Source: Pirellula staleyi DSM 6068
GTDB taxonomy: Bacteria; Planctomycetota; Planctomycetia; Pirellulales; Pirellulaceae
DNA length: 37,041 nt
Direction: 5' to 3'
Assembly (NCBI GenBank): GCA_945875845.1
Contig: CAMCMB010000073.1
Coordinates: 1-37,041, forward strand
Below, one piece after another: positions 431 to 36,738 of the stretch (within the stretch, counting starts at the first letter, position 1; each line of letters starts with the position of its first letter). The notes beneath the pieces were generated by a model. The model was not told where the DNA came from and searched no databases. It worked only from the letters and a program-made list of their open reading frames with translations. Both the position numbers and the translations under genes were made by a program.

Positions 431-748
431 ATGAAAGAGTCCACCAAAGAAGATTTAGCAAATCACTTTGGCCTCGAGTTATACGCCGAGGGCGGTAACG
501 TCATGGGTGTAGCCACAACAGAGGGTTTACGCAGGCAAGCTATTGAGCTCCGTTCCTCACCCGTACCGAGTGCCGACACTGTCGGTGTTGCGGGTGAGGC
601 TCCTGCCGAACCATTGCGTCGTAAGCTCGGCAGGAGCCTCGCCCTCCCATTGGTTTCCGATGGTTCGACATGGGAAAGATGTTTAGAGGGGTGGCCTCGC
701 CCTCCCAATTGGAAACGCGACGACCTCTGTCTCTCGGTCGATCGTTAG
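431..748 (+). pseudogene. Small mobile-element-associated ORF remnant
   Basis: An open frame of about 105 codons. The first 50 residues (beginning MKESTKEDLANHFG, with GGNVMGVATTEG and SSPVPSADTV further on) resemble the short, often annotated peptide found just upstream of group II intron reverse transcriptases or transposases, whose typical pattern is MKES..G.A.H.GPESC...G.AL...S.E....DAD.V. The second half is only the translation of a palindromic intergenic repeat (591-706), so the frame is not a natural protein. No reverse transcriptase or transposase follows; the next gene, speD, is on the other strand and the frames meet at 745-748. Best read as debris of an old insertion. The family assignment is from memory and weak. 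Confidence 0.3.
591..706. repeat. Palindromic GGCAGGAGCCTC repeat, long form, copy 1
   Basis: GTGAGGCTCCTGCCGAAC, a short spacer, then GCTCGGCAGGAGCCTCGCC form a large inverted repeat (591-649). It is followed by a non-palindromic extension (650-706) containing TTTCCGATGGTTCGACATGG and TTTAGAGGGGTG. The whole palindrome-plus-extension unit recurs at 7379-7502. It lies just beyond the 3' end of speD (minus strand), where the RNA hairpin could act as a terminator. Confidence 0.8.
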
Positions 749-23433: not shown

Positions 23434-23457
23434 GGGAAATTCCGACCTTAAGTTGCA

Positions 23458-23576
23458 CGACGCTCCGCGTCGTGATTCCTGCGTCGTGATTCCTGCGACG
23501 CGGAGCGTCGCTCAACGAAGCGATTCCTGCGTCGTGATTCCTGCGACGCGGAGCGTCGCTCAACGAAGCGATTCCT
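23458..23576. repeat. 48-bp tandem repeat with nested hairpins
   Basis: Two full 48-bp units (23474-23521 and 23522-23569) start GATTCCTGCGTCGTGATTCC and end CTCAACGAAGC; a third starts at 23570. Each contains the hairpin CGACGC-GGA-GCGTCG; a reverse version (CGACGC-TCC-GCGTCG) sits just ahead at 23458-23472. It starts 25 bases after the stop of the giant gene and may act in termination. Confidence 0.75.
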
Positions 23577-23902: not shown

Positions 23903-25012
23903 GTGGCAATCGCTTTTCCGTTGTTCTTGTTGGCAGTATTTGCCACTGTGGCACTCTTTCTTTACCGCGACTGCGTTGTTAGGACCTACGCAGGAAAGGG
24001 TCGTTCTCCAGATGTCTTGACTCAGGATCAAGCGCGAAGATATGCCAATATCCCGTTTGCGGCGGAGCTACAACTGAAGACCAATCAGTTGAGCAATGAT
24101 GCGATTGACCGAAAGAACGCTTACCAGCGCGTCGGAGTTGCAGTGATGTGCGCTGCACCTAGTTTGGTTATCCTACGGGCGTTTTCCTATCAACTAAAAG
24201 ATTGGCATCTCGCATCCGATTTTGGTCTGGTTGTAGCGGAGGGACTAGTGTGTTTTGCCGTATTTTTTATGGCCCTGCTCTATCGTGCCCCCAATCGATA
24301 CCACGTTCAAACTCGTCTGCGGTCAGAATATCTGCGGTCGCACGTGCATTGTCTTTTGGCTAGAGTTGGCCCCTATCAATGGAACTCCGACGCGGCGGGT
24401 GCGATACTCAAGGACATCGAGGGATTGGATGTCGTAGAACTCAAGCGCAGGTTCATCGAACTCGAAGAACAATGCGCTCGTCAGTCGCACGAACAACCTC
24501 ACACGACAGCCACCCCCTTATCCGTGGGTGAAGCGGAGAGTTATGTGATTGAGAGGGTTGGTGAACAGGCGGGTAAGATTGGAAAAGGAGGTTTTTTCTC
24601 ACGTGCGGGAAGTCGTTCCCAAGAAGCAAAGCGTCGATCGGCTAACGTATTTTATACGGCAATCTTTCTTGCGTGCGTCGTCGCTTTCATTCGGATGTTT
24701 TTTTATAACTACGTGCATCAAGAGTTCGTTGACTTCCTGTACGCATTGTGCGGGGCTACCGCTGCGCTGTCGTTAGCGTTGCGTATGTTATTCAATTTGG
24801 ATTCTAAAGCGAGCCTTTATTTTCGACAAAAGGAGCGTCTTGAGGATCTCGCCGCAAAGTTGTACGCAGCACTCGGAGAAATGAGGAGCGGAATTCCGGG
24901 AGCCTCAGTTCGTTTTCAGCAATCGGCCGCAGCATTTGAGTCGTTAATGGCGCGCGAGGCTTGTGACTGGCAGTTGATGACGGATCGCGAATCCTTTGAC
25001 GTGACTTCTTGA
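23903..25012 (+). CDS. SLATT-like membrane protein, conflict-system component
   Basis: A 369-residue membrane protein, first gene of the five-gene cluster. Starts GTG 23903, GAGG 12 bases upstream. An N-terminal helix (3-20) is followed by a helix pair (about 76-98 and 106-128), then YHVQTRLRSEYLRSHVHCLL and GPYQW, which fits the helical signature after the two helices of SLATT/DUF4231 proteins (R..aE.LR..... gpY). A linker with an acidic helix precedes a second helix pair (about 248-268 and 276-298) followed by FRQKERLEDLAAKLYAAL and a final E..L..REACDWQL, again SLATT-like. SLATT proteins accompany nucleotide-signalling conflict systems, where they are thought to form membrane pores. Two tandem units in one chain would be unusual. 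It is followed after 76 bases by the TIR-NACHT gene. The family call rests on pattern only. Confidence 0.7.
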   Translation: MAIAFPLFLLAVFATVALFLYRDCVVRTYAGKGRSPDVLTQDQARRYANIPFAAELQLKTNQLSNDAIDRKNAYQRVGVAVMCAAPSLVILRAFSYQLKDWHLASDFGLVVAEGLVCFAVFFMALLYRAPNRYHVQTRLRSEYLRSHVHCLLARVGPYQWNSDAAGAILKDIEGLDVVELKRRFIELEEQCARQSHEQPHTTATPLSVGEAESYVIERVGEQAGKIGKGGFFSRAGSRSQEAKRRSANVFYTAIFLACVVAFIRMFFYNYVHQEFVDFLYALCGATAALSLALRMLFNLDSKASLYFRQKERLEDLAAKLYAALGEMRSGIPGASVRFQQSAAAFESLMAREACDWQLMTDRESFDVTS

Positions 25013-25020
25013 TCCTAAGA

Positions 25021-25087
25021 AGTGTCGTTAGCTCAACGGTAAAACCTGGCATCTAATCACCATCATTCTCGGGCGGGAGTTGCAACC
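25021..25087 (+). other. tRNA-like leader in front of the TIR-NACHT gene (uncertain)
   Basis: GTTAGCTCAACGGTAAAACC (25027-25046) is very like a tRNA D-arm, TCTAATC (25052-25058) resembles an arginine-type anticodon loop, and GGGAGTTGCAACC resembles a T-arm, in the right order and approximate spacing. However, the stems do not pair properly and no acceptor stem closes it. It is either a decayed tRNA remnant or chance. The GGGAG at 25075-25079 is the ribosome binding site of the next gene. Confidence 0.25.
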
Positions 25088-25088
25088 A

Positions 25089-28000
25089 ATGTCGAGATCA
25101 ACGCGTCGCAAGTCCGTATTCGTTTCCTTGAGCTTTTCTGCCGATCAACATACCGACGATTTCCTGGATGAGTTTGAAAAGTATTTGGACGCAAAGGGAA
25201 TAGATTTAGAACGAGGCATAACCAAAGGCAACAATTCGTCCGGAACCATACAGATCTGGAATGATCAGGTAAAAGAGGGAATCGACAAGGCCGCTTGTTA
25301 CGTGGCGCTGCTCGACAATTTTAATGCCAACGTCGGATGGGAAGCAGGCTATGCATTAGCGACTAAACCCGAAAAAGTGATTCTTGCTAAAGTCGGCCGG
25401 ACATCCAAGCAAATGATGGAATTTTCCATGAAAGGACATGCCATTCAATCAACATGGGACCGGACGCACTATGTAGTAAAGAAGGAATTTCTTGATTATG
25501 TGGATACGGTTTTGGCGCAACCAACGCAGCGGATAGTTCGATCTGCACCTAAAAAGTTGACAACAACCAAAGCCAAACCGTGTCGAGGCGTTAAAATTGC
25601 TTTAGTACCTCAAGAAAACAACGGCGAACACTATCGAAAACTCTTCGCAAATCCCCCCTGGCAATTAAAGGATGTTAATTTGCCATGGCAACAGGTTAAA
25701 AAATGGGCCGATGGATTTAAGCCGACTGCCAAAGATGCTGCGGTGTGGGTGTTTCTAGAGCCTCGCGGGGTGCAGGGCAACCAGGATGGCGTTCAGAACA
25801 TGAATTGTGCCTTGCTTGCTGGCTATTTATATGGTCAGAAGAAATTCTCTCCAACTTGTGTTTACCTTCCGCATGGAGGAACGCGATTCCTTGTCGATCA
25901 GGCCGAATGTCGAAAATACTATGACACGGATGATCTACAATTTAAGATCCAAAACAAAACCCATCAAGACATGCCCGCATCTGAGGTATGCCGACGCTTT
26001 GCGATTGAGAATTGGTGGGATAGCAACAGTCTTACGAAAGAGGAGAAGCATGTTGTGTTTCATCCGTTTCGCCGTTGCGATGCGACCGGTGAGTTAGTGC
26101 GATCCGTCCTGCACCCGTGGGGCGACTACGCGGGCACCGATGCCGAACTGGAAGAATACTATGATGTGGTGGTCAATCATGGCGATGTCAAACGGGGAAC
26201 AGCGATTCGCTGGAAGGACATCTCGAACGAAGAGTTACTCGACGCATTGGTTGTGGGAGCGGATCAGGCATCTGGAACCAAATCAAGTGCAGCGCGGTTT
26301 ATCCTCGCCGCCGACGCTGGAGTTGGTAAAACCATAAGCCTTCGATGGCTTTGGCGATGTCTCGCAGAACGAGGGCAAAAAAATCACTCAATGGACATCG
26401 TACCGCTGTATATCCAAGCCAATAGCCTGCTCCGAGGCGCGAAGAATGTTGGGGACATCGAGGAAAATATTAGTCTGGCGCTCGGAGTGGGCTTTAAGGA
26501 GGAACGCCGCCGCCGGGGTGGCTGCTTGCAGGCACAATCCGTTACACATTTACTAATTGATGGGCTGGATCAACTATCGCCAGCTCGCGATAAAGATAGT
26601 CACAAAGCGTTAAGGGAGTATCTAAAGTCGAACCGTCGTATATCGGTCATCCTTGCCGGACGCCGTTATGCGATTCGCGAGTTCGACGAATCGTTTGGAT
26701 ACAAGAGTTCGGAGTGGCACATTCTTCGGCTCAAAGAATTTAAGGATACCGAGATCAAACTTTTCCTTGGGTACTCGAACGAATATCTGAGCATTTACCA
26801 AAAGCTTCCAATGGCGGTGCAGCGAATTCTTTGCGTGCCGAGGCTGCTAGCTCTTTTTACGTCTCTGAAGATCTCTGACGCTCTCAAGGTGCAGAGTTCG
26901 AGTGACATCTTTGCGTGGGCAACGACCCAGCTCATTGCGACAGACGTCACGGAGGGGAAATTACGCGAGATTGGCAAGGGCTTGGGAATTGCTTCGCGCT
27001 ACAAGGTGCAGTTTGTAAGTAAGCTGCTGGCGAGACTTGCCTATTTGCAGTTACGTCGATTCCAGAATAATACCAGCGGCTGGATTGAGGCGCTGACCCC
27101 AAATTTTCATGAGCTGCCTATTCAAGACGACGTCATCAATGATGTCCATCGCACTATGTTGGATATCGCATCGAATTACACGCGTAGACAAGCCAAAATC
27201 GATTTGGAGCGGAATCTGCTTTCCATTGGTTGGGCGATCGAACACGAGCGCTCGCCCAGTGGAGATGTTGACTGTGTGCTTACTGCAATCGAGTGGTCTA
27301 ATAAATCGTTTCTCGAATATTTCGGTGCGCTTTGGTTGAGCCGGTACGCGTCCGAAGACGAATCGAGAGATTTTTTCCAGTGGGTTTTTTATCACGGTGA
27401 TAGAAAGACTGAGCTTTTTTATCATGTAAACTTGTTCATCGCCGAAATGCCCGAAACGGATGGGAGCAACTCGACGGACAATCGTATTAAAGAATCCACT
27501 TACCGGAACCCGCTTGTTTGGATGCGCACTGTCGAGCAATGGTACGTTCCCCTATCGTCGCGAGCTGAAGAATCCAGCGGTTTGCGTTCATGCGAGATGA
27601 TCTTTCGAACTTGGCAATGCTTGCATGCCTATGCAAAGTTGCAGTATGTCGACTGGTGGGATCGATCTTACCAAGACTTGTTTGAGGGGAAAGCAATTGT
27701 TTCACCCGCATCAATCGTTCCGCCAAATGTAGAATCCGAGGCCAAGCGAATACTAAGCGCCTACACTGGCGAGCTTCAAAATTTATTGACTTCATCGAGC
27801 CATGGGTCCGAAGTGGATGAGTTTGTATCGCAGGGATGGAACCAAGTGCCGTGCGGTGAATTCACGATGGGCTATCCAAAAAAGAGTCAAGGATTTCCTA
27901 GCAAAACGAAGGCATTTTGGGAAGCAAACCTCGCGAAGGTCGCAGGGAGGGATCGCAATGGAGTGTCAGTCAACCCAGCCTCGGACTTACTGGAATTCGC

Positions 28001-29021
28001 ACAAGATCTCAACAAGCGGTATTGGTTTACTGGACTACTTGGGCTTCGCGATTGGCATAAGGATGTCGATTGGTTGCACGATGTCTTTGTTGAATTGCGG
28101 AACCGTTGCTTGGCCGATGACTACGATCGAGCCATCGACGTTGCCTATAAGGCAATTGAGAAGAACTGGCGTCGAAAGGATGAGAACACTCACAAGGATG
28201 AACCGAAACAGAAAATCCGCTCGTTTGTCATGAGAGAAGTTCCAGTCCTAAACCGCCACTACTCGATTTTTGAGCCCGGACATGGCGAGCAAGTTGCGTT
28301 TTATATTGCCTCTTCACGATCGACCTCTGAAACGGCGACTCCGAGCTCAGTGGAATTGAAGGCTGCAAAACATCCTGAGGATCATCCTGCGATCTATATT
28401 TCCTGGTATTCCGCATGGGCTTTCTGCCAGTGGGCTCGATGGACAGATGAAGCCAGCGCGTTTCATTGGCTGCGACTACCACATGAGCCAGAGTGGGAGT
28501 TCGCAGCGCGGCACATGCCAGGTCCTGGCGGAAAGATTGCACCGAGAAAGCAACGATATTGGTGGGGAAGCGAAGTCTACGCCAACGAAGAAGGTGGTGA
28601 TGAAGAGGATATTTCGAACCAATACGCTCATGCCATACAAGGAGGCCCTGGATCCACATCGTCTCCCTACAAACGGTCCAATGGGATACAGGTCGAAGGA
28701 AACGGGCTTGGATTTCGTGATATCTTCGGGAATGTCTGGGAGTGGTGCGCTAATAGTTACAATGAAGTCACCGATCGCCGTGAGTCTCGGTACTCACGCC
28801 GTGAACCGACGGGAAAAAGAGACTCCTTTGGCAGACAACTGGATGTGGACGGCAGGATCTGGGAAGGTCGAAGTCGCGCGATGCGTGGCGGCGTCTGGTA
28901 CTTCCTTCACTTGCTCGCACGATTGTCACATCGTTATCGCCTGCCTCAGAACGACTGCGACTACAAAATTGGGTTCCGAGTGGTACGCGAGACAGTGCTG
29001 CCTCCCGATTGCAAAATCTGA
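25089..29021 (+). CDS. TIR-like / NACHT-type NTPase / FGE-sulfatase-fold fusion
   Basis: A 1310-residue STAND-type protein, probably the sensor-effector of a conflict system. Start ATG 25089, GGGAG nine bases upstream (TTG 25080 is weaker). Residues 8-125 are TIR-like: SVFVSLSFSAD first strand and VGWEAGYALA, with Glu85 where TIR NADases have the catalytic Glu. Residues about 150-395 are an unrecognised alpha/beta region. The NTPase has Walker A AADAGVGKT (407-415, Lys414), Walker B THLLIDGLDQL (about 486-496) and ILAGRRYAI, then helical winged-helix-like parts. From about 915, VPCGEFTMG starts an FGE-sulfatase fold, continued after a helical insert by HPAIYISWYSAWAFCQW, LRLPHEPEWEFAARH, GNVWEWC (1214-1220), RGGVW (1266-1270) and IGFRVV. 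The usual catalytic Cys is absent, so this domain should bind rather than catalyse. Confidence 0.85.
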   Translation: MSRSTRRKSVFVSLSFSADQHTDDFLDEFEKYLDAKGIDLERGITKGNNSSGTIQIWNDQVKEGIDKAACYVALLDNFNANVGWEAGYALATKPEKVILAKVGRTSKQMMEFSMKGHAIQSTWDRTHYVVKKEFLDYVDTVLAQPTQRIVRSAPKKLTTTKAKPCRGVKIALVPQENNGEHYRKLFANPPWQLKDVNLPWQQVKKWADGFKPTAKDAAVWVFLEPRGVQGNQDGVQNMNCALLAGYLYGQKKFSPTCVYLPHGGTRFLVDQAECRKYYDTDDLQFKIQNKTHQDMPASEVCRRFAIENWWDSNSLTKEEKHVVFHPFRRCDATGELVRSVLHPWGDYAGTDAELEEYYDVVVNHGDVKRGTAIRWKDISNEELLDALVVGADQASGTKSSAARFILAADAGVGKTISLRWLWRCLAERGQKNHSMDIVPLYIQANSLLRGAKNVGDIEENISLALGVGFKEERRRRGGCLQAQSVTHLLIDGLDQLSPARDKDSHKALREYLKSNRRISVILAGRRYAIREFDESFGYKSSEWHILRLKEFKDTEIKLFLGYSNEYLSIYQKLPMAVQRILCVPRLLALFTSLKISDALKVQSSSDIFAWATTQLIATDVTEGKLREIGKGLGIASRYKVQFVSKLLARLAYLQLRRFQNNTSGWIEALTPNFHELPIQDDVINDVHRTMLDIASNYTRRQAKIDLERNLLSIGWAIEHERSPSGDVDCVLTAIEWSNKSFLEYFGALWLSRYASEDESRDFFQWVFYHGDRKTELFYHVNLFIAEMPETDGSNSTDNRIKESTYRNPLVWMRTVEQWYVPLSSRAEESSGLRSCEMIFRTWQCLHAYAKLQYVDWWDRSYQDLFEGKAIVSPASIVPPNVESEAKRILSAYTGELQNLLTSSSHGSEVDEFVSQGWNQVPCGEFTMGYPKKSQGFPSKTKAFWEANLAKVAGRDRNGVSVNPASDLLEFAQDLNKRYWFTGLLGLRDWHKDVDWLHDVFVELRNRCLADDYDRAIDVAYKAIEKNWRRKDENTHKDEPKQKIRSFVMREVPVLNRHYSIFEPGHGEQVAFYIASSRSTSETATPSSVELKAAKHPEDHPAIYISWYSAWAFCQWARWTDEASAFHWLRLPHEPEWEFAARHMPGPGGKIAPRKQRYWWGSEVYANEEGGDEEDISNQYAHAIQGGPGSTSSPYKRSNGIQVEGNGLGFRDIFGNVWEWCANSYNEVTDRRESRYSRREPTGKRDSFGRQLDVDGRIWEGRSRAMRGGVWYFLHLLARLSHRYRLPQNDCDYKIGFRVVRETVLPPDCKI

Positions 29022-29041
29022 GATAAAAGCTCAAAGCAGTA

Positions 29042-29128
29042 CCCAGGGCGGCGCTTCGCGACGTTTCCGTCGCTGCGCACTGCCCTGGGCTAAGTTGTTG
29101 CTGCCCCATTCGGGGCGAAAGACGCACG
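29042..29128. repeat. Dispersed repeat, CCCAGGGCGGCGCTTC family, copy 2
   Basis: CCCAGGGCGGCGCTTCG, a spacer, GCCCTGGGCT, then CTGCCCCATTCGGGGCGAAAG. Matches 267-345. It lies in the 240-base gap between genes 2 and 3 of the conflict cluster, so it may split the cluster into two transcription units or may be a later insertion. Confidence 0.6.
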
Positions 29129-29261
29129 AAACATCCAGGGAGGCGGCGGGCGATACCTATACCCCCGCCGTATGAGTACAATCCAAAGTCTATCCAAGAG
29201 CCATTGACCGCGATTCCGTCGAAAACCACGCACGCAAAACGAATCATCCAAGAGTAAGAAA

Positions 29262-31304
29262 ATGTTAACCCTGATCCAATGGATTCTTCAGCCGAAACGT
29301 CTCCTTGGGCTCGCTTGCGGCCTGTTCGCTCTTTTTTGGCTGTTCAATGGGAGCGAAATCATATCGCGAACGCCAGATAAGTCCGAATCGAAGGCGATCG
29401 CGGAATTCAAACGCAACAACCCGAAGGCAGCGGATTGGTTAGCACAGCAGAAAGATAGGTATGGGCAGTTCAATACCTCCGTTGCAATGGAATCTCTGCG
29501 GGGGCGAGTTCTCAATCCAGAAGCTCTGAAACAAAACGTTGAAATCCGGGCACGCCTCATATCGCTTTACCAGAACGATGGAGCAGATCACGAAAGCGTC
29601 CTGTGGTCACATGGGACCGCGATGGACGCGATGAGTGAACTACCCGATGAAACGGACGCGTACCTAACTAACCTAGAAACTGCGAGAGTGGACCAAGACT
29701 ATTGGAGCCTCGTGCGAAGTGACCCCGTTGCATTATCAAGCAAGCTGCTCAAGTCGAACTTGGAACTCAGAAAACATTATCTGGACAATCGAGATTGGTA
29801 CGTTGAGATGACTGAGGTATTGGTGGCAATGATTGGAATCACACCGGCGGATGACGCCGACGAGGAAGATGCTGGATTCGTTCAGATTGACGACTTGCTG
29901 CAAGTAGCCAATGACGGCAAACCCTATTTGATGCAGCTCGTTCCAAAACCCAGCGAGTCCAGCGTAGAAGCGTGCATTTATTACGAGACTTTTCGCCAGT
30001 TTGGTCAAGTCATTTCGATGGCGGCTCAACAGGGAGTACCACCCAAAGAAGCAACCGAAGTCATCATACTGAATCGGGATGCGCTGCTTCAGGATGATGA
30101 GGTTGAAGGTGCAAAAGTTCAGGATCCGACGACTGTTGCTGCTCGACTGGTAACACTTTATCGGAGTCGACCTAGTGTTTGGGCCGCCGCGCAACGTGAT
30201 GGGTACGTATTATCCTTCGATCAACTTACACCGGGTCTTTCGCAGTCCGTCCTCGAGAAGCACGCCGATCTTGGGGTCGCTTCCTTGATCGCGACTCAGT
30301 ATCCGGACGTGGCGACGAAGGCTGCTGCAATCGTGGACAATTATGGAGAACTCGGTATTGCGGTGCTCGCCCAATACGACGGCTCAGAAAACTTCCGCGC
30401 GCTGCTTCGTAACGGCAGCGTCGATCACCGAATCGCAATGGTAGCAGTGCTCAAATCCGACGTGGGACTCGAGTCTGTGCTTGGCGACCCTGCCTACCTC
30501 GACAAGTGGATCGACAAAGAGGGCAAGCCGTTAGCGGACGAATGGTGGGTCAATGTGCCACTCGTAGGCGGTGTGGCAAAGGTCGCCAAAAATTACGGTA
30601 CCGGTGTTCCAAGTGATTGGAGCGAAATCGGCTGGGCGGCTTGGGATGTTGCCGACGTTGGGTTGATGATCGCGAGTTTTGGTACATCCAAAGTATTGAC
30701 CGAGGGCGCCAAGCAAGGCGCAAAACAAGCCGGTAAATCGGCGGCCAAGAAAATGGGAACAGCAGGCGTCGGACGCACTATCAAAGCACAGGCAAAGACG
30801 TCGGCTATGACAAGACTGGTAACCGCCGCAAAAGCATCCAAAGTCGCCGCGCCGATTCGCTGGACATCGCGCACCATCATCCATGTAACACGAGCGACAA
30901 AGACGATGGGTGGAAAACTGATCTCCGCCAGCAACCGGGTTATTCAGACGGCCAAAGCGATCCCACCGGGTGTTCGCAAGTGGGCCGCGCGTGGATTACT
31001 TGGTGCCAGCCTGTTTGTCCGAGGTCCCGAGCGAATCCAGGCACTCATCTCTTCCGTCAACAAGTATGCGACGGACGTAGTCAGCGACGCAATCAACGCG
31101 ATTCCAAAAGCGGTGGCCGAGGCTACAGAGAAGGTAAAGCAAGCCGCCGCAGAGGTCGCCCGCGGCAATGTTTCTTTGCTAATGAACTTGATGATCATTG
31201 GGATCTCTGCGCTGTTTGCTTTTGTGTTGCTTTTTGATGTCTGGCCCCGATGGAACCTCGCGGGTAAATCTGTTTCATCTGCCTCAGAAAGGCGAACGAA
31301 GTGA
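29262..31304 (+). CDS. Membrane protein with TM at each end and Lys/Ala-rich amphipathic segment
   Basis: A 680-residue protein of no recognised family. ATG 29262 has AGAG seven bases upstream. A transmembrane helix lies at about 13-30 (LLGLACGLFALFWLF) and another at about 638-660 (LLMNLMIIGISALFAFVLLFDVW). Between them, residues 35-430 look like a helical, weakly repetitive domain. Residues about 440-560 are rich in Lys, Ala and Gly with amphipathic periodicity (GAKQGAKQAGKSAAKKMG, then AKTSAMTRLVTAAKASKV), and residues about 600-635 again (INAIPKAVAEATEKVKQAAA). Such stretches may insert into or lie on membranes. The next gene starts one base after its stop, so they form an operon; the GTPase is likely its partner. 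A role as the membrane-disrupting part of the system is inference only. Confidence 0.7.
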   Translation: MLTLIQWILQPKRLLGLACGLFALFWLFNGSEIISRTPDKSESKAIAEFKRNNPKAADWLAQQKDRYGQFNTSVAMESLRGRVLNPEALKQNVEIRARLISLYQNDGADHESVLWSHGTAMDAMSELPDETDAYLTNLETARVDQDYWSLVRSDPVALSSKLLKSNLELRKHYLDNRDWYVEMTEVLVAMIGITPADDADEEDAGFVQIDDLLQVANDGKPYLMQLVPKPSESSVEACIYYETFRQFGQVISMAAQQGVPPKEATEVIILNRDALLQDDEVEGAKVQDPTTVAARLVTLYRSRPSVWAAAQRDGYVLSFDQLTPGLSQSVLEKHADLGVASLIATQYPDVATKAAAIVDNYGELGIAVLAQYDGSENFRALLRNGSVDHRIAMVAVLKSDVGLESVLGDPAYLDKWIDKEGKPLADEWWVNVPLVGGVAKVAKNYGTGVPSDWSEIGWAAWDVADVGLMIASFGTSKVLTEGAKQGAKQAGKSAAKKMGTAGVGRTIKAQAKTSAMTRLVTAAKASKVAAPIRWTSRTIIHVTRATKTMGGKLISASNRVIQTAKAIPPGVRKWAARGLLGASLFVRGPERIQALISSVNKYATDVVSDAINAIPKAVAEATEKVKQAAAEVARGNVSLLMNLMIIGISALFAFVLLFDVWPRWNLAGKSVSSASERRTK

Positions 31305-31305
31305 A

Positions 31306-33213
31306 ATGGCCGACCCTATCAAGGCTCCCATCGAAAGGTCGACAATCGTCGACAATCAAGACGACGTTCATCGTCATTCGGAGTCTACAACCCCAGAAAC
31401 GCTGGTGCAGCCAGTCCGAATTCAAATGCTTGGCGAAAGTGGAGTAGGTAAGACCTGTTTTCTCGCTGGTTTAGCGCTGTTAAACGAGCAGACTGGCGGA
31501 CGCAGTTTTGTTCTGCCAAAGGATGATAAAACCAAATCGATTTTTGACAAGTTACGTGAAACACTTATGCAAGGGCGTTGGCCAGCAAAGACATCGATTG
31601 TGGAAGAACTTTCGTTCGACGTTGTCCGAGGAGCGAGTCGCGTCGGTGTGCAACTGAACGACTTTGCGGGCGAAAGCTTCACCGACTCGATGAAACGAGG
31701 AAACGCGACCGAGGCGGCAGACAAAATCAAATCGCTCGTCAACGGAGCGGATGTGCTGATGGTCATGCTCGATGGTGCCGCGATCGATCGCGGCGAGGAG
31801 TTTGCAGGTGCACCGTTAATACAGGCCGTATTCGAGCGAATTCATCGCGGCGATCTAGACGTTGCCGTCGTTCTCACGAAGAGCGATTTGTGTACTAGCA
31901 TCCCGATGACGACTAGCCGTGACTTAAAAAACGCAGTCGCAAGCCGTGCACCCGACTTGGCTAGATTCCTCCAGGAACAAAGTATCCCAACGGAGTGGAT
32001 ACCGGTTAGTGTTTGCGGCCCCAATGCAATGGACGATTCGGGATCACCCATTTACCCGGCGCTATCGCCTCAAGGATACGAAACAATCTTTGAGCAATTG
32101 TTTCGTCGCAACCGACGTCCACGAAACCGCTTGATCAAACGGATCGCTGCCGCCACCCTATTGGTACTTTTCATGGGCTTTGCATGGACCATCCTGCATA
32201 GTCGGCAGGTTGCGAGCCAGGCAGACCAGATTAAGGATCGCACGGTACCGATCGCCAATGTCCCTGACGTTGTCGGAAAGGAGAATGAACCGCTTGTTCG
32301 CGAGAGGTATGCAGAAGACTTTGCGAAGGCGAAGAAAGACATTGAAGCAAGCGGAAATGTCGAATCGATCGCATTGGTACTAAAACGATTCGAAACGATA
32401 CCGCCCGCACACGATCCACTTGTTCGTGGCGGCCTGGAACAACTCAAGTCTCAGGCAAGTCTGCGCAAAGAAGAATTGCTTCATAAACTCGTCCTCGATT
32501 GTCAGCAACTTCGTACCGGAGATTGCGTTCCGTTGATTAGCAAGTATCTAAGTGAGTTTCCTGAGGGCCCGAATGCCGAAGAATTGCGAAAGATGCTCAA
32601 TGACATTAATCAAGCTCGATACCTAACGGCGCGAGGGTTTGTGAAAGCAGTTCCTGTAACCAGCACGGAAGCACTTCGTCAGAAGTGTGGTGCGATCACA
32701 AAATTCCTGGACGAAAATGAACAATTTCTGCCGGCCGGAGAAAAGGAATCGATCGCTTCCGCTCGCGATATGGCTCTCCAATTCGTCACGTCACGCCAGT
32801 ACCGATGCAAGCTTGTTCGGACGAGCGGCCTGGATGGACCAAGAGATCATGGTGTTGAGATTGAGGTTGGCGGAGTGCGAATTGCCAACTTCAACGACTC
32901 AGGCGATGTGACCGAGAAAAACTGGGATCGCAGTTTCACAGTCGCTTGGAAGTCAGGCCAAAGTATCAAAGTAAAATTGGTCAACTACGACGGCTTCGAT
33001 CACGACATCGCATACTTTGATGATAGCTCTCCAGTGGCCATCATTCTCCTAGCAAAAAAGAACGATCCAAATCGCTATTTTGAAGGTACGTTTTTTTCAG
33101 AGGACTTCACCAAGACGCGGCCTCCAGTCAAAGTTGCTTTTGAATGCCAAGAGCTGCCAACCGAAAAACTGAAGCTTATCTCGGATTATCTGTTGCCGGG
33201 GGACAAGTGGTGA
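31306..33213 (+). CDS. Membrane-anchored GTPase with C2-like extracytoplasmic tail
   Basis: A 635-residue P-loop GTPase. Start ATG 31306, one base after the upstream stop. Residues 37-50 RIQMLGESGVGKT give the G1 motif (Lys49); NDFAGE (118-123) gives the DxxG G3 motif; VVLTKSD (188-194) gives G4. WP..T between them and the GES/GE spacing recall the double-GTPase (DO-GTPase) clade known from conflict gene clusters, but that is a resemblance only. RNRLIKRIAAATLLVLFMGFAW leads into a transmembrane helix at about 281-301. The rest (about 305-635) should face the other side: helical to 490, then a beta-rich C2-like stretch (about 498-615, VEIEVGGVRIANFND, KNWDRSFTVAWKSGQSIKV, VNYDGFDHD). The stop TGA overlaps the GTG of the next gene. 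Confidence 0.75.
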   Translation: MADPIKAPIERSTIVDNQDDVHRHSESTTPETLVQPVRIQMLGESGVGKTCFLAGLALLNEQTGGRSFVLPKDDKTKSIFDKLRETLMQGRWPAKTSIVEELSFDVVRGASRVGVQLNDFAGESFTDSMKRGNATEAADKIKSLVNGADVLMVMLDGAAIDRGEEFAGAPLIQAVFERIHRGDLDVAVVLTKSDLCTSIPMTTSRDLKNAVASRAPDLARFLQEQSIPTEWIPVSVCGPNAMDDSGSPIYPALSPQGYETIFEQLFRRNRRPRNRLIKRIAAATLLVLFMGFAWTILHSRQVASQADQIKDRTVPIANVPDVVGKENEPLVRERYAEDFAKAKKDIEASGNVESIALVLKRFETIPPAHDPLVRGGLEQLKSQASLRKEELLHKLVLDCQQLRTGDCVPLISKYLSEFPEGPNAEELRKMLNDINQARYLTARGFVKAVPVTSTEALRQKCGAITKFLDENEQFLPAGEKESIASARDMALQFVTSRQYRCKLVRTSGLDGPRDHGVEIEVGGVRIANFNDSGDVTEKNWDRSFTVAWKSGQSIKVKLVNYDGFDHDIAYFDDSSPVAIILLAKKNDPNRYFEGTFFSEDFTKTRPPVKVAFECQELPTEKLKLISDYLLPGDKW

Positions 33214-34253
33214 GGCAAGCTGATTATGTCTATGGAATAGTTCCCGAACGAGGTGAGTACGGCTTTGAAGTCCAGCCGGATCAAGGCGATCAAGCTTTGC
33301 TCACGCGCGTTCAAACACTCGCATCCAGTTTTCAGTGGAACGCAACCAATGCAACAACCAACGAGGATGTCGTTGCCATTGCAGTCGATCGAAGTCATCC
33401 TCCGTTGATCGCACGTATCGGCACCGATCCCCGAGATCCCAATGGACGACTGAGCATTTGCATGCAAGTATGGATCACCTCTTCCGCCGAGCCACTGGAG
33501 CAGATGATTGCCGACGTTTGGCCAGCCTCGGTTCGACTGCCCACTACGCAAGCGGAGTTTCTTTCTGTTGCCCTACAGCAAAAGTCAGGACGCATAGTCG
33601 TTGGACCCAACAACTCGTTCAGTGCCGTCGGTTTTGATTCGAGTTGGGGAGTATCAAGGGTGATACCTGATGCTTCTCACGTTGGGGGTAATCCAAAATT
33701 CACTGCTCGACCGAGTTCATCGACAACGAATCGAGTCTCACAATCGCCGAGGAAATCATTCTCGCTGTTAAAAATGTTCTCAACGCTAATGGCTTTTGCA
33801 CTGCTATCGACCGTCGTTTTTGCGGTAATACAATACTCGGAAATTGAGAAACTGCGAGCGAATACAAGGAGCTTAGTCGAAGACAAGAGCGAAGCCCAGC
33901 GTAACGCTCTTGAGCTGCAAAGGCAGATCGATGAGGAGGCAAAAGCGAGACTACAAGGATCGATCGAAATCGAAGCGAAGACGCGAGAGTTGACCGAGTT
34001 GCGCAGCGAGTTGCAGCGGCTGAAGTCCCGTGTGGGCGAACTGGAAAGCGTGGTGGCTGCAAGTCCAGGAAAAGTGGACCAAGCAGAACTGTTGTCGCTG
34101 CGAACGTTCAAAGATGCCGTAGAAAGATATATCAATTCTCAAGGGCGTTCGCTCGAAGAACTAAAAAACGCATTTCCCCAATCGCTAACCCGACTTGAAG
34201 AACGAACGGACAAAGTCAAGGAAGTCATTCAAGGAAAGAACAACAATAAGTGA
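33210..34253 (+). CDS. Membrane-anchored coiled-coil protein, last gene of the cluster
   Basis: A 347-residue protein. The GTG at 33210 overlaps the preceding TGA stop (GTGA) and has GGGGGA about six bases upstream, so it is preferred over an ATG at 33144 buried in the previous gene. Residues 1-145 form a soluble domain (YVYGIVPERGEYGFEV, VVAIAVDRSHPPLIARIG), possibly alpha/beta, of no recognised family. Residues about 150-180 are Ser/Thr-rich linker. A transmembrane helix at about 188-208 (FSTLMAFALLSTVVFAVI) is followed by a long coiled coil (about 212-295, heptads in LRANTRSLVEDKSEAQRN and LTELRSELQRLKSRVGELE) and a short helical tail. Translational coupling to the GTPase suggests a fixed-ratio complex. 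The function is unknown; it could be a scaffold or regulator of the GTPase. Confidence 0.7.
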   Translation: MRQADYVYGIVPERGEYGFEVQPDQGDQALLTRVQTLASSFQWNATNATTNEDVVAIAVDRSHPPLIARIGTDPRDPNGRLSICMQVWITSSAEPLEQMIADVWPASVRLPTTQAEFLSVALQQKSGRIVVGPNNSFSAVGFDSSWGVSRVIPDASHVGGNPKFTARPSSSTTNRVSQSPRKSFSLLKMFSTLMAFALLSTVVFAVIQYSEIEKLRANTRSLVEDKSEAQRNALELQRQIDEEAKARLQGSIEIEAKTRELTELRSELQRLKSRVGELESVVAASPGKVDQAELLSLRTFKDAVERYINSQGRSLEELKNAFPQSLTRLEERTDKVKEVIQGKNNNK

Positions 34254-34259
34254 GCCCAT

Positions 34260-34322
34260 CGCAAGACCTTGTGTCATGAGAAGCAAAGTCTGGTCGGCTA
34301 ACAACCATCGCCGTCAGGCGAC
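34260..34322. repeat. Hairpin repeat (CTTGT loop), copy after conflict cluster
   Basis: CGCAAGAC, loop CTTGT, GTCATGAG (34260-34280) keeps the loop but has mismatches in the stem. It is followed by AAGCAAAGTCTGGTCGGC and ATCGCCGTCAGGCG, the same block as at 23628-23695 and, reversed, 13289-13355. It lies seven bases past the last gene's stop. Nothing more is recognised up to the tmRNA at 34486. Confidence 0.75.
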
Positions 34323-34485: not shown

Positions 34486-34841
34486 GGGGGCGATCTGGAA
34501 TCGACCGGATAAATGAAGATCTTGGTGGCATGTCGTGGTTGATCGGTTGGCCACGTAAAAAGCCGGTTAAAAAATGTAACTGCAGAGGAAAACCTCGCAC
34601 TAGCAGCCTAGTTTAGGCAGCTCAGGTACCCAGGGCCCGCCGGAGGCGCTGGAATACCTGTCGCAATTCCGGACCGCATTGTCCCGTGTCTCGCACGGAT
34701 GATGTTAAAAAAGCTCGAGGCTGGCGCACCGCACCGAGGTCAACAACGAACGTGGTGGGCGAGACAAAGACTAGTTGACTAAACATGTAGAGGCCGGATT
34801 GGAAGTATCGCGGGACGGGGGTTCAATTCCCCCCGCCTCCA
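34486..34841 (+). ncRNA. ssrA: tmRNA (transfer-messenger RNA)
   Basis: Rescues stalled ribosomes with SmpB. The 5' GGGGGCG (34486-34492) pairs with 3' CGCCTCC (34834-34840) as the acceptor stem, one G-U pair; the discriminator is A34841. CCA is not encoded. The T-arm GGGGGTTCAATTCCCCC lies at about 34817-34833. The tag frame is 34582-34611: GCA GAG GAA AAC CTC GCA CTA GCA GCC TAG, giving, with the charged Ala, AAEENLALAA; the LAA end is the ClpXP degron. A rho-independent terminator follows, and a tyrosine recombinase gene comes next, which is a classic island insertion site. The 5' boundary is by pairing. Identification is firm. Confidence 0.93.
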
Positions 34842-34844
34842 TTT

Positions 34845-34881
34845 AAAGCCACTTTGCGATTCGTTGCAAAGTGGCTTTTTT
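34845..34881 (+). terminator. Rho-independent terminator of tmRNA
   Basis: AAAGCCACTTTGC (34845-34857), an 8-nt loop, GCAAAGTGGCTTT (34866-34878), then a T run. The stem is a near-perfect 13 bp with the poly-T expected of an intrinsic terminator. It lies four bases past the tmRNA. Confidence 0.9.
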
Positions 34882-34933
34882 CATGCACTTACGTCATTCT
34901 CAGCCCGCTCAAGAGTCTCGAAAACTGGCAAAA

Positions 34934-34998
34934 TATCCGATTTTGTATCCGATTATTGACCATCCAGTATCCGATTTTGTATAATCGGACATCGGACT
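34934..34998. promoter_or_regulatory. Direct and inverted repeats upstream of the recombinase
   Basis: TATCCGATTTTGTAT occurs at 34934-34948 and 34968-34982, with a third partial copy (TATCCGATTAT) at 34946-34956. The second copy makes an inverted repeat with AATCGG (CCGATT..AATCGG) before the recombinase start. Such a cluster could be binding sites of the recombinase itself (arm sites and/or autoregulation) or of a regulator. The function is inferred from position only. Confidence 0.5.
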
Positions 34999-35037
34999 CG
35001 AACCCGTGACGGAGTTCTTCCTGGTGTGGAAATACGG

Positions 35038-36738
35038 ATGGCTACCAACAAAAGCAAATTGGGCAAACCGGATAGCAAGGGGAATTACAAGCGTGACCTT
35101 GGGAAAAAGGTCAGCGGGTCACCCCATCGCTTCTACCTCGGAAAAGACCCGGAGCAGGCCGAGCAACGAAAGCAGCGGCTGGAAAGTGTCTGGGCGAGCA
35201 TCGAGGCGCAGGCTGAGAGTCCAGAAGCCGCATTCTGGACGGACACCTCGATCCAAATTGGCATCGCAATTGGCAAAGGCGAAAATTCTGTCCGGTTGGC
35301 ACCGCCTCTCCCGTTGACAGGCGATGAAGATTTTCGAGCCTACGTTCACCATGTCGATCTCATGGCCCGTAGGTTCGCAATGATTTCGATTTTGCCCGCC
35401 GACGTTGACGGATACAGACGGGGCCAGGAAATCATCTTAGGAATTAAGCGGGAGATTGCTCAGGTTGGCCAGAAAGCCTTCGGTGAACCAAATATCCTGG
35501 AGATGGAAACTGCCATGCTCCATGAGGCGATGGACGACTACATCCAGATGATGCGAACTGAGCATGTGGACCCTGAAACCCGGAAGCCCACAGCCTACGG
35601 CAACAACTCTGTAAGGCAAGTAGCGTTGTTGAAGGATCGTCACGAGAACGTGATGTTGGGCCAGCTAACCCTGGGGACAATCAAGAAGGCTTTTCAGTAT
35701 TGGGCTTCTAGGCCCCATAAAAAGGGAACAACCAAGCCGATTACCGTTCGGAGTGCAGAGAATTACATCAAGCGTTGGAAACACTTTCTTTGGTGGCTTC
35801 ACGATTCGGAAAAATATCGCTGGAAGGCTCCTTCGGATTTACTTCGACTCAAGGTGAAAGTTCGCAAGACAGAGAAAGAAACGCAGGCAACGATTAGCCC
35901 CATTCAGGTAAAATCATTCCGAGAGGAAGAGTTGGTCATTCTCTTCAAATACGCAACTCCATTAGAGCGTGTGTATATTCTGCTTGGACTCAACTGCGGA
36001 TTTGCAGTATCCGAGTTCGGAACACTGCGTCTCAACCAGATATTTCGGCATCAATTGCACGGGTTCGATAATCTCATCAACTACCAGAGCAACTCTGTTC
36101 AGTCGTGGATTAAAAGAGTTCGTTTGAAGAATAAGGTTTATGGTGAATGGTTGCTTTGGCCTGAAACCGTTGCTGCGATTGAGTGGGCGATTGAGCGTCG
36201 AAAAAAACAACCGGATTTTCGCCCCGATGCGCTGCTGGCCATGACCGATAGAAATCTCCCTTATTATGGCCAAACGGATGGGGGAAATAACGCATCTAGG
36301 ATTTCAAAGCTGTGGTATCGGGGCCTCATGGACCGCATTCAGAAAGACCTGCCTGAGTTTCCACGTCTTAGCCCAAAAAGTCTCAGAAAAACGGCTGGCA
36401 ACTTGATGCGGGATATTGCCGGTGGTGAGATCATGGGCGTATTTCTCGCTCATGGCCAACCCGTAAAAACGGATGACTTGGCAGAACAGTACAGCAACCG
36501 TCCTTTTGGGAAGGTATTTGAACACTTAGATGTTATGCGTAAACGCTTGCAGCCGTTGTGGGTAGCAGTACCGGACCCGTTTCCTCTCGACAAGGCAAAG
36601 ACACGAAATGGCGGTTCCAACATTAGCGTTAGCAAGATTGATGCAATCAAAGAACTTACTGCGGAGGGCAAAACGCCGGATGAGATTGCTGAAGCACTGA
36701 ATATTTCAGTCGCAACCGTATATCGTCGCCGAAAATAA
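35038..36738 (+). CDS. Tyrosine recombinase (integrase) with C-terminal HTH
   Basis: A 566-residue site-specific recombinase. ATG 35038 has GGA seven bases upstream; GTG 35026 is possible. The N-terminal 250 residues are a Lys-rich SAM-like core-binding part. The catalytic part shows GFAVSE (321-326) where the family has G.R.sE (the first Arg appears replaced by Ala323), SPKSLRKTAGN (445-455) with Arg450 in the HxLR position, FLAHG (468-472) with His471 as the box II His, and QYS with Tyr485 as the candidate nucleophile. Residues about 532-566 (KIDAIKELTAEGKTPDEIAE, ALNISVATVYRRRK) form a helix-turn-helix as in serine resolvases. Its position next to the tmRNA 3' end indicates that it integrated an island there. 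It may still be active; the missing Arg is puzzling but seems shared by long planctomycete integrases. Confidence 0.85.
   Translation: MATNKSKLGKPDSKGNYKRDLGKKVSGSPHRFYLGKDPEQAEQRKQRLESVWASIEAQAESPEAAFWTDTSIQIGIAIGKGENSVRLAPPLPLTGDEDFRAYVHHVDLMARRFAMISILPADVDGYRRGQEIILGIKREIAQVGQKAFGEPNILEMETAMLHEAMDDYIQMMRTEHVDPETRKPTAYGNNSVRQVALLKDRHENVMLGQLTLGTIKKAFQYWASRPHKKGTTKPITVRSAENYIKRWKHFLWWLHDSEKYRWKAPSDLLRLKVKVRKTEKETQATISPIQVKSFREEELVILFKYATPLERVYILLGLNCGFAVSEFGTLRLNQIFRHQLHGFDNLINYQSNSVQSWIKRVRLKNKVYGEWLLWPETVAAIEWAIERRKKQPDFRPDALLAMTDRNLPYYGQTDGGNNASRISKLWYRGLMDRIQKDLPEFPRLSPKSLRKTAGNLMRDIAGGEIMGVFLAHGQPVKTDDLAEQYSNRPFGKVFEHLDVMRKRLQPLWVAVPDPFPLDKAKTRNGGSNISVSKIDAIKELTAEGKTPDEIAEALNISVATVYRRRK

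What the first reader, a model, noticed from the sequence alone, without database searches (positions are those of the whole stretch)
23903..34253. Five-gene TIR / NACHT / FGE-fold / GTPase / membrane cluster: candidate undescribed conflict system
Seen: five same-strand genes encode, in order, a SLATT-like membrane protein, a TIR-NACHT-FGE fusion, a two-TM Lys/Ala-rich protein, a TM-anchored GTPase with a C2-like tail and a TM-anchored coiled-coil protein. Genes 3-5 are coupled (1-bp gap; GTGA overlap). Known: TIR, NACHT and SLATT domains all occur in nucleotide-using bacterial immunity. Inference: the FGE-fold end senses a ligand, NACHT oligomerises, TIR consumes a nucleotide, and the membrane genes execute envelope damage or remodelling. 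I do not recognise this combination as a named defence system. Four of five products are membrane proteins, which points to an envelope-acting effector arm.
Basis: partly seen in the sequence, partly recalled or inferred. Interest (0 to 1): 0.85.

Follow-up and report, generated by a model that had tools for sequence, protein, structure and literature searches.

The report
Two adjacent modules; one membrane GTPase cassette
The reported five-gene cluster in a planctomycete is two separate things side by side: a sensor-type immune gene pair of a described class, and an undescribed three-gene membrane GTPase cassette that in a related bacterium sits inside a phage-defence (BREX type 2) operon.

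Summary
The five genes are real, but they are not one conserved system. Genes 3-5 (29262-34253) form an ordered cassette found in 25 genomes; a gene-2 relative accompanies it only in the window. Twelve regions (3-20 kb) around other gene-2-like NACHT matches hold no cassette. Genes 1-2 are a SLATT-like membrane protein plus a (TIR/DRHyd-like)-NACHT-FGE receptor, fitting the published STAND-FGS conflict class; the same genome has two more TIR-NACHT-FGE genes. Gene 4 belongs to the double-GTPase (DO-GTPase) superfamily: 16 of 16 homologues match and the Walker-B glutamate is invariant. The N-terminal domain of gene 5 is a probable divergent GAP1-N domain (profile E 7e-4; 0 of 300 column shuffles as good), although Pfam and HMMER see none. 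Gene 3 has no known family. Genes 3-5 are best read as a new membrane-built subtype of the predicted GTPase-centric conflict systems, patchy and under purifying selection. In Rhodopirellula sp. SM50 the cassette lies between pglW and pglX of a BREX type 2 operon, itself followed by FGE, DO-GTPase and GAP1-N2 genes. Defence is inferred, not shown: 13 of 17 scanned cassette neighbourhoods look unrelated to it. New variant of a known kind; interest about 0.5.

The parts
23903..25012 (+). gene 1: membrane protein, five hydrophobic segments; C-terminal half SLATT_1-like (about 24611-24973)
   Evidence: (NCBIfam SLATT_1 6.7e-8, below cut-off); 1 of 100 family genomes has it (own only)
25080..29021 (+). 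gene 2: TIR/DRHyd-like end (about 25125-25403), NACHT (26304-26762), C-terminal FGE / C-type-lectin-fold domain (28200-28988); better start ATG 25089
   Evidence: paralogues and relatives
29262..31304 (+). gene 3: cassette component 1, membrane segment at the C-terminal end and, by its homologues, at the N-terminal end; no known family
31306..33213 (+). gene 4: cassette component 2, DO-GTPase (G domain about 31420-31962), membrane segment 32131-32187, C-terminal region after it
   Evidence: (16 of 16 members match DO-GTPase2)
33210..34253 (+). gene 5: cassette component 3, probable divergent GAP1-N domain (about 33243-33521), membrane segment 33774-33830, coiled coil
29036..29080 (+). dispersed repeat in the 240-bp gap that separates gene 2 from the cassette; 11 further matches in the genome
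23630..23688 (+). left copy of a 59-bp direct repeat that flanks the five genes; its core is a genome-wide repeat, so not a mobile-element border
   Evidence: 29 sites in the genome, up to 2 mismatches in a 23-base core
34262..34320 (+). right copy of the same repeat

Best explanation
Two independent modules lie side by side. (A) Genes 1-2 are a STAND-type conflict receptor: the C-terminal FGE (C-type-lectin fold) senses an invader molecule, NACHT oligomerises, the N-terminal TIR/DRHyd-like domain makes or consumes a nucleotide signal, and the SLATT-like membrane protein answers to it. (B) Genes 3-5 are a planctomycete membrane GTPase switch of the GTPase-centric (DO-GTPase/GAP1) kind. Gene 4 carries the G domain in the cytoplasm and a large C-terminal region across the membrane. 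Gene 5 presents a GAP1-N-like domain to that G domain and a coiled coil across the membrane. Gene 3 supplies a large body anchored at its ends. GTP binding set by an upstream sensor changes the state of this trans-membrane complex, most likely to limit infection through the envelope. Shown: anatomy, gene order, family of gene 4, purifying selection, separateness of A and B in the loci examined, the BREX-2 placement in one species. Strongly suggested: GAP1-N in gene 5. Inferred: topology, signalling order, anti-invader role.
For: Gene order over 25 genomes: g4 follows g3 in 18 of the 20 that can be judged, g5 follows g4 in 12 of 16. Gene-2 relatives beside the cassette: 1 of 25, the window. Twelve regions around other gene-2-like NACHT matches: 0 with the cassette. 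DO-GTPase2 in 16 of 16 gene-4 homologues; D119, G122, E123 of the Walker-B region invariant. GAP1-N: A4 vs A5 E 7e-4, score 30.2, A4 vs A7 E 0.0012, score 28.6 (positive control 40.5, negatives about 15; best of 300 shuffles 20.3). Rhodopirellula SM50: cassette 3 bp after full-length PglW and upstream of PglX, with PglY-like, PglZ, BrxD downstream, then FGE, DO-GTPase and GAP1-N2 genes. A kinase-FGE gene is next to it in L016 and one gene away in L017.
Against: No function is tested. In 13 of the 17 cassette loci whose upstream neighbourhood was scanned, nothing recognised as conflict-type is there; the four with such genes are all in the window's family, and none of the 8 scanned loci outside it has any. 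No GAP1-M/C, FNIII or GASH partner was detected. Pfam finds no GAP1 in gene 5 among the families shown; an HMMER profile of its N-domain finds no GAP1 protein better than E 0.57, and that match lies outside the GAP1-N domain; the profile-profile probability is only 26%; a first, low-power comparison gave E 0.28 and 0.053. The G domains of the cassette and of canonical DO-GTPases are separated by very long branches and do not resolve as one clean split. No relative of gene 4 on plasmids, of genes 3 or 4 on viral contigs. The Nuc_deoxyrib_tr/TIR_2 matches of gene 2 and the SLATT match of gene 1 are below cut-off.
Confidence: 0.6

Rival explanations
1. Genes 3-5 are an envelope-stress or envelope-maintenance GTPase complex (in the manner of DO-GTPases beside psp operons) with no immune role; defence neighbours are coincidence.
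For: Membrane build of all three products; none of the 8 scanned loci outside the window's family has a conflict-type neighbour; theirs include a FliH, a flagellin and an aminotransferase gene, others unrecognised; a DO-GTPase is reported in some gammaproteobacterial psp operons and predicted to act in membrane stress (PMC11237479, one passage).
Against: Very patchy presence (16 of 396 order genomes, 9 of 241 family genomes, 4 of 392 phylum genomes, own genome included) is odd for housekeeping; position between pglW and pglX of a BREX-2 operon and kinase-FGE partners in two loci.
Confidence: 0.28
2. The five genes do act as one system in this lineage: the TIR-NACHT-FGE receptor was recruited to drive the GTPase cassette.
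For: Same strand, 240-bp gap; gene 2 has a 96% relative, gene 3 an 87% and gene 4 a 95% relative, whose neighbours could not be read; FGE-bearing genes also lie by the cassette in L016 and L017, roughly 0.2 expected within 3 kb of some 20 loci at the FGE density; Kaur 2020 notes FGS effectors in some planctomycete GAP1-N2 systems.
Against: 1 of 25 cassette loci; gene-2-like NACHT genes stand without it in 12 of 12 regions; a dispersed repeat lies between genes 2 and 3; L016 and L017 may share descent; the window was chosen for this very feature.
Confidence: 0.15
3. Genes 3-5 are passengers carried between genomic islands, with a role in neither defence nor envelope upkeep.
For: Varied neighbours.
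Against: dN/dS 0.14-0.30 and held gene order.
Confidence: 0.05

Closest known systems
GTPase-centric conflict systems, DO-GTPase + GAP1-N2 (Kaur et al. 2020, PMC7159879; passages read)
   Same: DO-GTPase with the Walker-B glutamate; GAP1-N-like gene directly downstream; membrane emphasis; FGS partners reported in some planctomycete systems; extracytoplasmic beta-sandwich tails described for some GTPases (whether gene 4's tail is one was not testable)
   Different: Gene 5 has only a GAP1-N-like domain, then a membrane segment and coiled coil; no GAP1-M/C, FNIII repeats or second GTPase found; gene 3 is a new component; gene-4 subfamily far from the canonical ones
STAND NTPase-FGS conflict proteins with N-terminal effector (Kaur et al. 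2021, PMC8195603; DGR-linked forms in PMC10907252; passages read)
   Same: Gene 2 has a variable N-terminal domain, NACHT and C-terminal FGE; several copies per genome, as published
   Different: N-terminal domain only TIR/DRHyd-like; SLATT-like neighbour; no DGR template found for its FGE end
BREX type 2 (Pgl)
   Same: In Rhodopirellula SM50 the cassette lies inside such an operon
   Different: In 29 other stretches searched, window included, the SM50 BREX proteins match nothing but two short kinase-domain stretches of PglW
Avs / bNACHT defence proteins
   Same: General plan effector-STAND-sensor of gene 2; NCBIfam shows a weak match to the NACHT antiphage protein EruA, E 0.0021, far under cut-off
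   Different: No PADLOC match for genes 1-4 at E up to 1; gene 5 only weak matches through its coiled coil, best 0.0013

Membership tests
DO-GTPase (gene 4) | G domain matching the DO-GTPase family | tested here: met
   DO-GTPase2 43.5 bits, over the 27-bit cut-off; 16 of 16 homologues match at E up to 1
DO-GTPase (gene 4) | conserved glutamate in the Walker B region | tested here: met
   D119, G122, E123 invariant in 16 sequences
GTPase-centric system | GAP1 gene downstream of the GTPase (N, M and C domains) | tested here: inconclusive
   gene 5 N-domain matches the GAP1-N2 profile; no Pfam GAP1 among the families shown; HMMER profiles of whole GAP1 proteins find only weak matches (best 0.017) to the membrane/coiled-coil end of gene 5
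GTPase-centric system | GASH or FNIII component | tested here: not met
   none among Pfam matches of 34 gene-3 members at E up to 1 nor of the neighbours scanned; not all neighbours were scanned
STAND-FGS conflict protein (gene 2) | STAND NTPase fused to C-terminal FGS/FGE | tested here: met
   FGE far over cut-off, NACHT 25.8 of 26.7 bits; two paralogues over both cut-offs
STAND-FGS conflict protein (gene 2) | recognised N-terminal effector or EAD | tested here: inconclusive
   Nuc_deoxyrib_tr 0.0029, TIR_2 0.12; no PDB sequence match
STAND-FGS conflict protein (gene 2) | NADase or signal-making activity | not testable with these tools
   needs biochemistry
SLATT (gene 1) | 2TM SLATT domain | tested here: inconclusive
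   NCBIfam SLATT_1 6.7e-8, 32.6 of 41 bits
BREX type 2 | pglW, pglX, pglY, pglZ, brxD around the window's cassette | tested here: not met
   SM50 PglW, PglX, PglY-like, PglZ, BrxD and the helicase frame match nothing in the window at 1e-5; present only around the SM50 copy

The most novel reading that the evidence does not exclude
Genes 3-5 are an undescribed membrane-built DO-GTPase/GAP1-N defence module of planctomycetes that works alone or plugs into other immune systems: BREX type 2 in Rhodopirellula SM50, kinase-FGE switches in two other genomes, and a TIR-NACHT-FGE receptor here. Gene 3 would be a new trans-envelope effector or tether.
Probability: 0.3. Interest if true: 0.75.

Novelty: new variant of a known kind. 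Interest (0 to 1): 0.5.

Why it matters
DO-GTPase/GAP1 systems were predicted by sequence analysis. In the library searched, three papers held one of four such terms, one of them (PMC8998981) by its title an alignment-methods paper; the passages I read in the other two report no experiment on them. A compact three-gene version with one GTPase, a minimal GAP1-N-like protein and one new membrane partner would be easier to test than the larger canonical loci. The SM50 copy inside a BREX-2 operon gives a direct defence assay. It also warns against reading adjacency as system: the SLATT-like/TIR-NACHT-FGE pair and the cassette are separable.

Tried and rejected
Mobile-element borders: the core of the 59-bp direct repeat flanking the five genes occurs at 29 genome sites with up to 2 mismatches, so rejected. 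Insertion next to tmRNA: 27 of 27 genus genomes have an Rfam tmRNA match (22 over cut-off); of 14 regions fetched 13 were examined (L130, 1 kb, left out); none has a gene matching a window protein at 1e-8, so no empty site could be shown. DGR diversification of the FGE end: no template-like copy in the genome; all 11 extra matches fall in the intergenic repeat. First GAP1 comparisons: searches failed on a format fault; one search gave E 0.28 and 0.053 with the positive control at only 0.10, so too weak to use; repeated with family alignments. HMMER gave no support for GAP1 in gene 5: the full-length gene-5 profile hit one GAP1 protein at 0.003, coiled coil not excluded, the N-domain profile none of weight. 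A5 holds 13 GAP1-N2 proteins from 18 PF20013 places (L129 dropped for a wrong frame start, four places not fetched as long loci) plus one from SM50. Tree of G domains: cassette rows do not form one clean side (one split in 7% of bootstrap trees), long branches, so I claim no sisterhood. Viral contigs: pattern-based scans, no relative of genes 3 or 4; plasmids: none of gene 4; gene 3 was not tried on plasmids. PDB sequence search with gene 3: only CERT lipid-transfer chains at E about 0.07, taken as chance. The pre-toxin-like look of gene 3's PLVGG...GWAAWD motif is recalled only; no Pfam support. Duplicates dropped before counts, identity checked: L053=L021, L054=L022, L018=L014, L019=L012. 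In the gene-5 alignment A2, L063 and L064 proved to be unrelated downstream genes and were left out of A4. Gene-2-like matches: 12 of the 16 genomes were fetched, in stretches of 3-20 kb.
Full report
WHAT IS THERE. Gene 4 begins at 31306 after a 1-bp gap, and gene 5 at GTG 33210 in a GTGA overlap. Genes 1 and 2 are 67 bp apart (76 from the better start of gene 2). Genes 2 and 3 are 240 bp apart, and that gap holds a repeat with 11 further matches in the genome. The window is a whole contig, C73 of a 7.0-Mb, 149-contig genome. Named relatives of gene 3 come from records titled Pirellula, Rhodopirellula and Planctomycetaceae (five loci).

DOMAINS. Gene 1: SLATT_1 by NCBIfam, 6.7e-8, under its cut-off, with five hydrophobic segments. 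Gene 2: FGE 2e-27 and NACHT 1.1e-5; the N-terminal end matches Nuc_deoxyrib_tr (0.0029) better than TIR_2 (0.12), neither over cut-off, with no PDB sequence match. I therefore call it TIR/DRHyd-like. Gene 4: DO-GTPase2 at 43.5 bits (cut-off 27) and one membrane segment. Gene 5: soluble N-domain, membrane segment, coiled coil. Gene 3: no Pfam family in its 34 members beyond scattered weak matches.

THE CASSETTE. Gene-3 relatives were found in 4 of 392 phylum genomes, 9 of 241 family genomes and 16 of 396 order genomes; these samples overlap and include the window's own genome. Over 25 distinct genomes gene 4 follows gene 3 in 18 of the 20 that can be judged (in L037 and L052 only part of gene 4 is on the contig). 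The two exceptions are L057, with about 1.1 kb of downstream DNA, and L050, where gene 3 itself is a fragment. In five the contig ends too soon (L017, L058, L062, L065, L066). Gene 5 follows gene 4 in 12 of 16; L022, L055, L063 and L064 lack it. Selection is purifying in genes 3-5, dN/dS 0.14-0.30 in three pairwise comparisons per gene. I saw no cassette outside planctomycetes, but other phyla were covered only by one pattern scan for close relatives and by protein searches whose hits mostly bear no organism.

SEPARATENESS. Only the window has a gene-2 relative among the 25 cassette loci. Gene 2's first 907 residues match 16 of 240 family genomes; apart from the window itself, every match starts at residue 368 or later, so the N-terminal part is not shared. 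In the 12 regions fetched around such matches, 3-20 kb each, none carries the cassette. Nine of those proteins were scanned: all nine have NACHT and FGE matches, three have TIR_2 (two of them in the window's own genome, 1.3e-14 and 7.4e-15), one has DUF4062. The 1-400 region of gene 2 found one homologue, 96% identical, among 5138 candidates. Gene 1 was found in 1 of 100 genomes, its own. A published account describes STAND NTPase-FGS proteins with variable N-terminal effectors and several copies per organism (PMC8195603, passages); gene 2 fits it.

GENE 4. All 16 homologues match DO-GTPase2 and 15 match DO-GTPase1 at E up to 1. G48, K49, D119, G122, E123, K192 and D194 (P-loop, Walker-B region, TKxD) are invariant. 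The published trait is a conserved glutamate in Walker B (PMC7159879, passages).

GENE 5. Its N-domain profile (A4, 12 rows) against GAP1-N2 (A5, 14 rows) gives E 7e-4, score 30.2 over 99 columns, with the motif LvAR..D.G.D..gR lying on iSRt..aG.eYSgR; against the longer-protein subgroup alone E 0.0012. The positive control, two GAP1-N2 subgroups, gives 7.4e-6; negatives give 0.48 and 0.54. Reversed profiles give 0.17 and 0.07; 0 of 300 column shuffles reach the score, best 20.3. Against this: the reported probability is 26%; Pfam shows no GAP1 for the window protein nor among the 25 most shared of 153 families matched by the 14 proteins scanned; an HMMER profile of the N-domain recovers no GAP1-N; an earlier low-power comparison was inconclusive; and I chose the comparison after seeing the motif. 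I take GAP1-N as probable, not proven.

NEIGHBOURS. For 17 of the 25 cassette loci the upstream neighbourhood was scanned (L014 only through its orthologue in L012; in L022 and L055 not the very nearest frame). Four have conflict-type genes, all in the window's family: the window; L016 (sigma factor, then kinase-FGE 111 bp before gene 3, and 1.3 kb beyond gene 5 a 1374-residue frame whose middle resembles NACHT/AAA proteins); L017 (divergent sigma factor, then kinase-FGE); and L020. The other 13 have ordinary or unrecognised genes, 8 of them outside the family. Four loci were not scanned and four lack upstream DNA. FGE matches number 98 in 9 genomes of about 56 Mb, fragments included, so roughly 0.2 would be expected within 3 kb of some 20 loci; three are seen, one of them the window that prompted the search, and the other two may share descent.

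THE SM50 CASE. In Rhodopirellula sp. SM50 (L020; the adjoining stretches L171 and L172 overlap it exactly) the order is DruE-like, NERD-helicase, DruD-like, PglW (PADLOC E 0), then 3 bp later genes 3-4-5, a 141-residue gene, PglX (E 0), a 783-residue protein with a sub-cut-off DUF2868 match. Downstream (L172) come a 459-residue frame with a P-loop, a 256-residue frame, a PglY-like frame (46% to proteins beside annotated BREX-2 pglZ genes), PglZ (36% to annotated BREX-2 PglZ), BrxD (64% to annotated BrxD) and a helicase-like frame, then FGE-like, DO-GTPase and GAP1-N2 proteins (E 2e-8, 3e-34, 4e-4). The helicase's BREX name rests on position only. This places the cassette inside a BREX type 2 operon. 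It is one case: in 29 other stretches the SM50 BREX proteins match only two short kinase-domain stretches.

MECHANISM. Genes 1-2: receptor, oligomerising NTPase, nucleotide signal, membrane response; inferred from family knowledge. Genes 3-5: net positive charge on the N-side of the membrane segments of genes 4 (+5) and 5 (+4) suggests that the G domain and the GAP1-N-like domain share the cytoplasm and the C-terminal parts lie across the membrane. I infer a GTP-gated trans-membrane complex acting on the envelope. A purely envelope-stress role remains the main rival; a DO-GTPase is reported in some gammaproteobacterial psp operons (PMC11237479, one passage).

NOVELTY. Among held papers three contain any of 'DO-GTPase', 'double-GTPase', 'GAP1-N1', 'GAP1-N2'. 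A search for BREX, DO-GTPase, PglW and related terms listed four papers, none holding 'DO-GTPase' (listing only). Supplementary tables were not readable, so the cassette could be listed there. I rate it a new variant of a known kind.

Noticed in passing
window 34486-36738: A tmRNA gene (34486-34844, tag AEENLALAA) is followed directly by an ORF (35026-36738) that I read, from recall, as a tyrosine-recombinase-like integrase; Pfam shows only weak C-terminal HTH matches. It looks like an integrative element entering at the tmRNA 3' end, on the side away from the five genes; the contig ends at 37041.
   Followed up: partly
L020, L171 and L172 (Rhodopirellula sp. SM50, NZ_NTFY01000083.1): Dense defence island: Druantia-like genes, BREX type 2 with the cassette inside, another P-loop frame, then FGE + DO-GTPase + GAP1-N2.
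   Followed up: partly
G000:C17 (L155, 4882-9180 and 12938-16069): Two further TIR_2-NACHT-FGE genes in the window's own genome, one with an extra N-terminal AAA_35 domain.
   Followed up: partly
L016:2-4123: 1374-residue frame, open at the contig start, near a cassette; central part resembles NACHT/AAA proteins, N-terminal part looks nuclease-like by eye only; 32% full-length relative on an Isosphaeraceae plasmid.
   Followed up: partly
window 436-645: Group II intron D1-D4-6 match (Rfam, 70.6 bits); a reverse transcriptase was not searched for.
   Followed up: no
L050:9091-10173: Gene-3 fragment with an internal stop and no gene 4 in a single-contig genome (G479): a decayed cassette.
   Followed up: no
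G000:C112 (L116): A canonical GAP1-N2 / DO-GTPase locus exists elsewhere in the window's genome, followed by a row of genes of about 290-302 residues.
   Followed up: partly
window 23452-23564: Palindromic 48-bp tandem pair upstream of gene 1.
   Followed up: no
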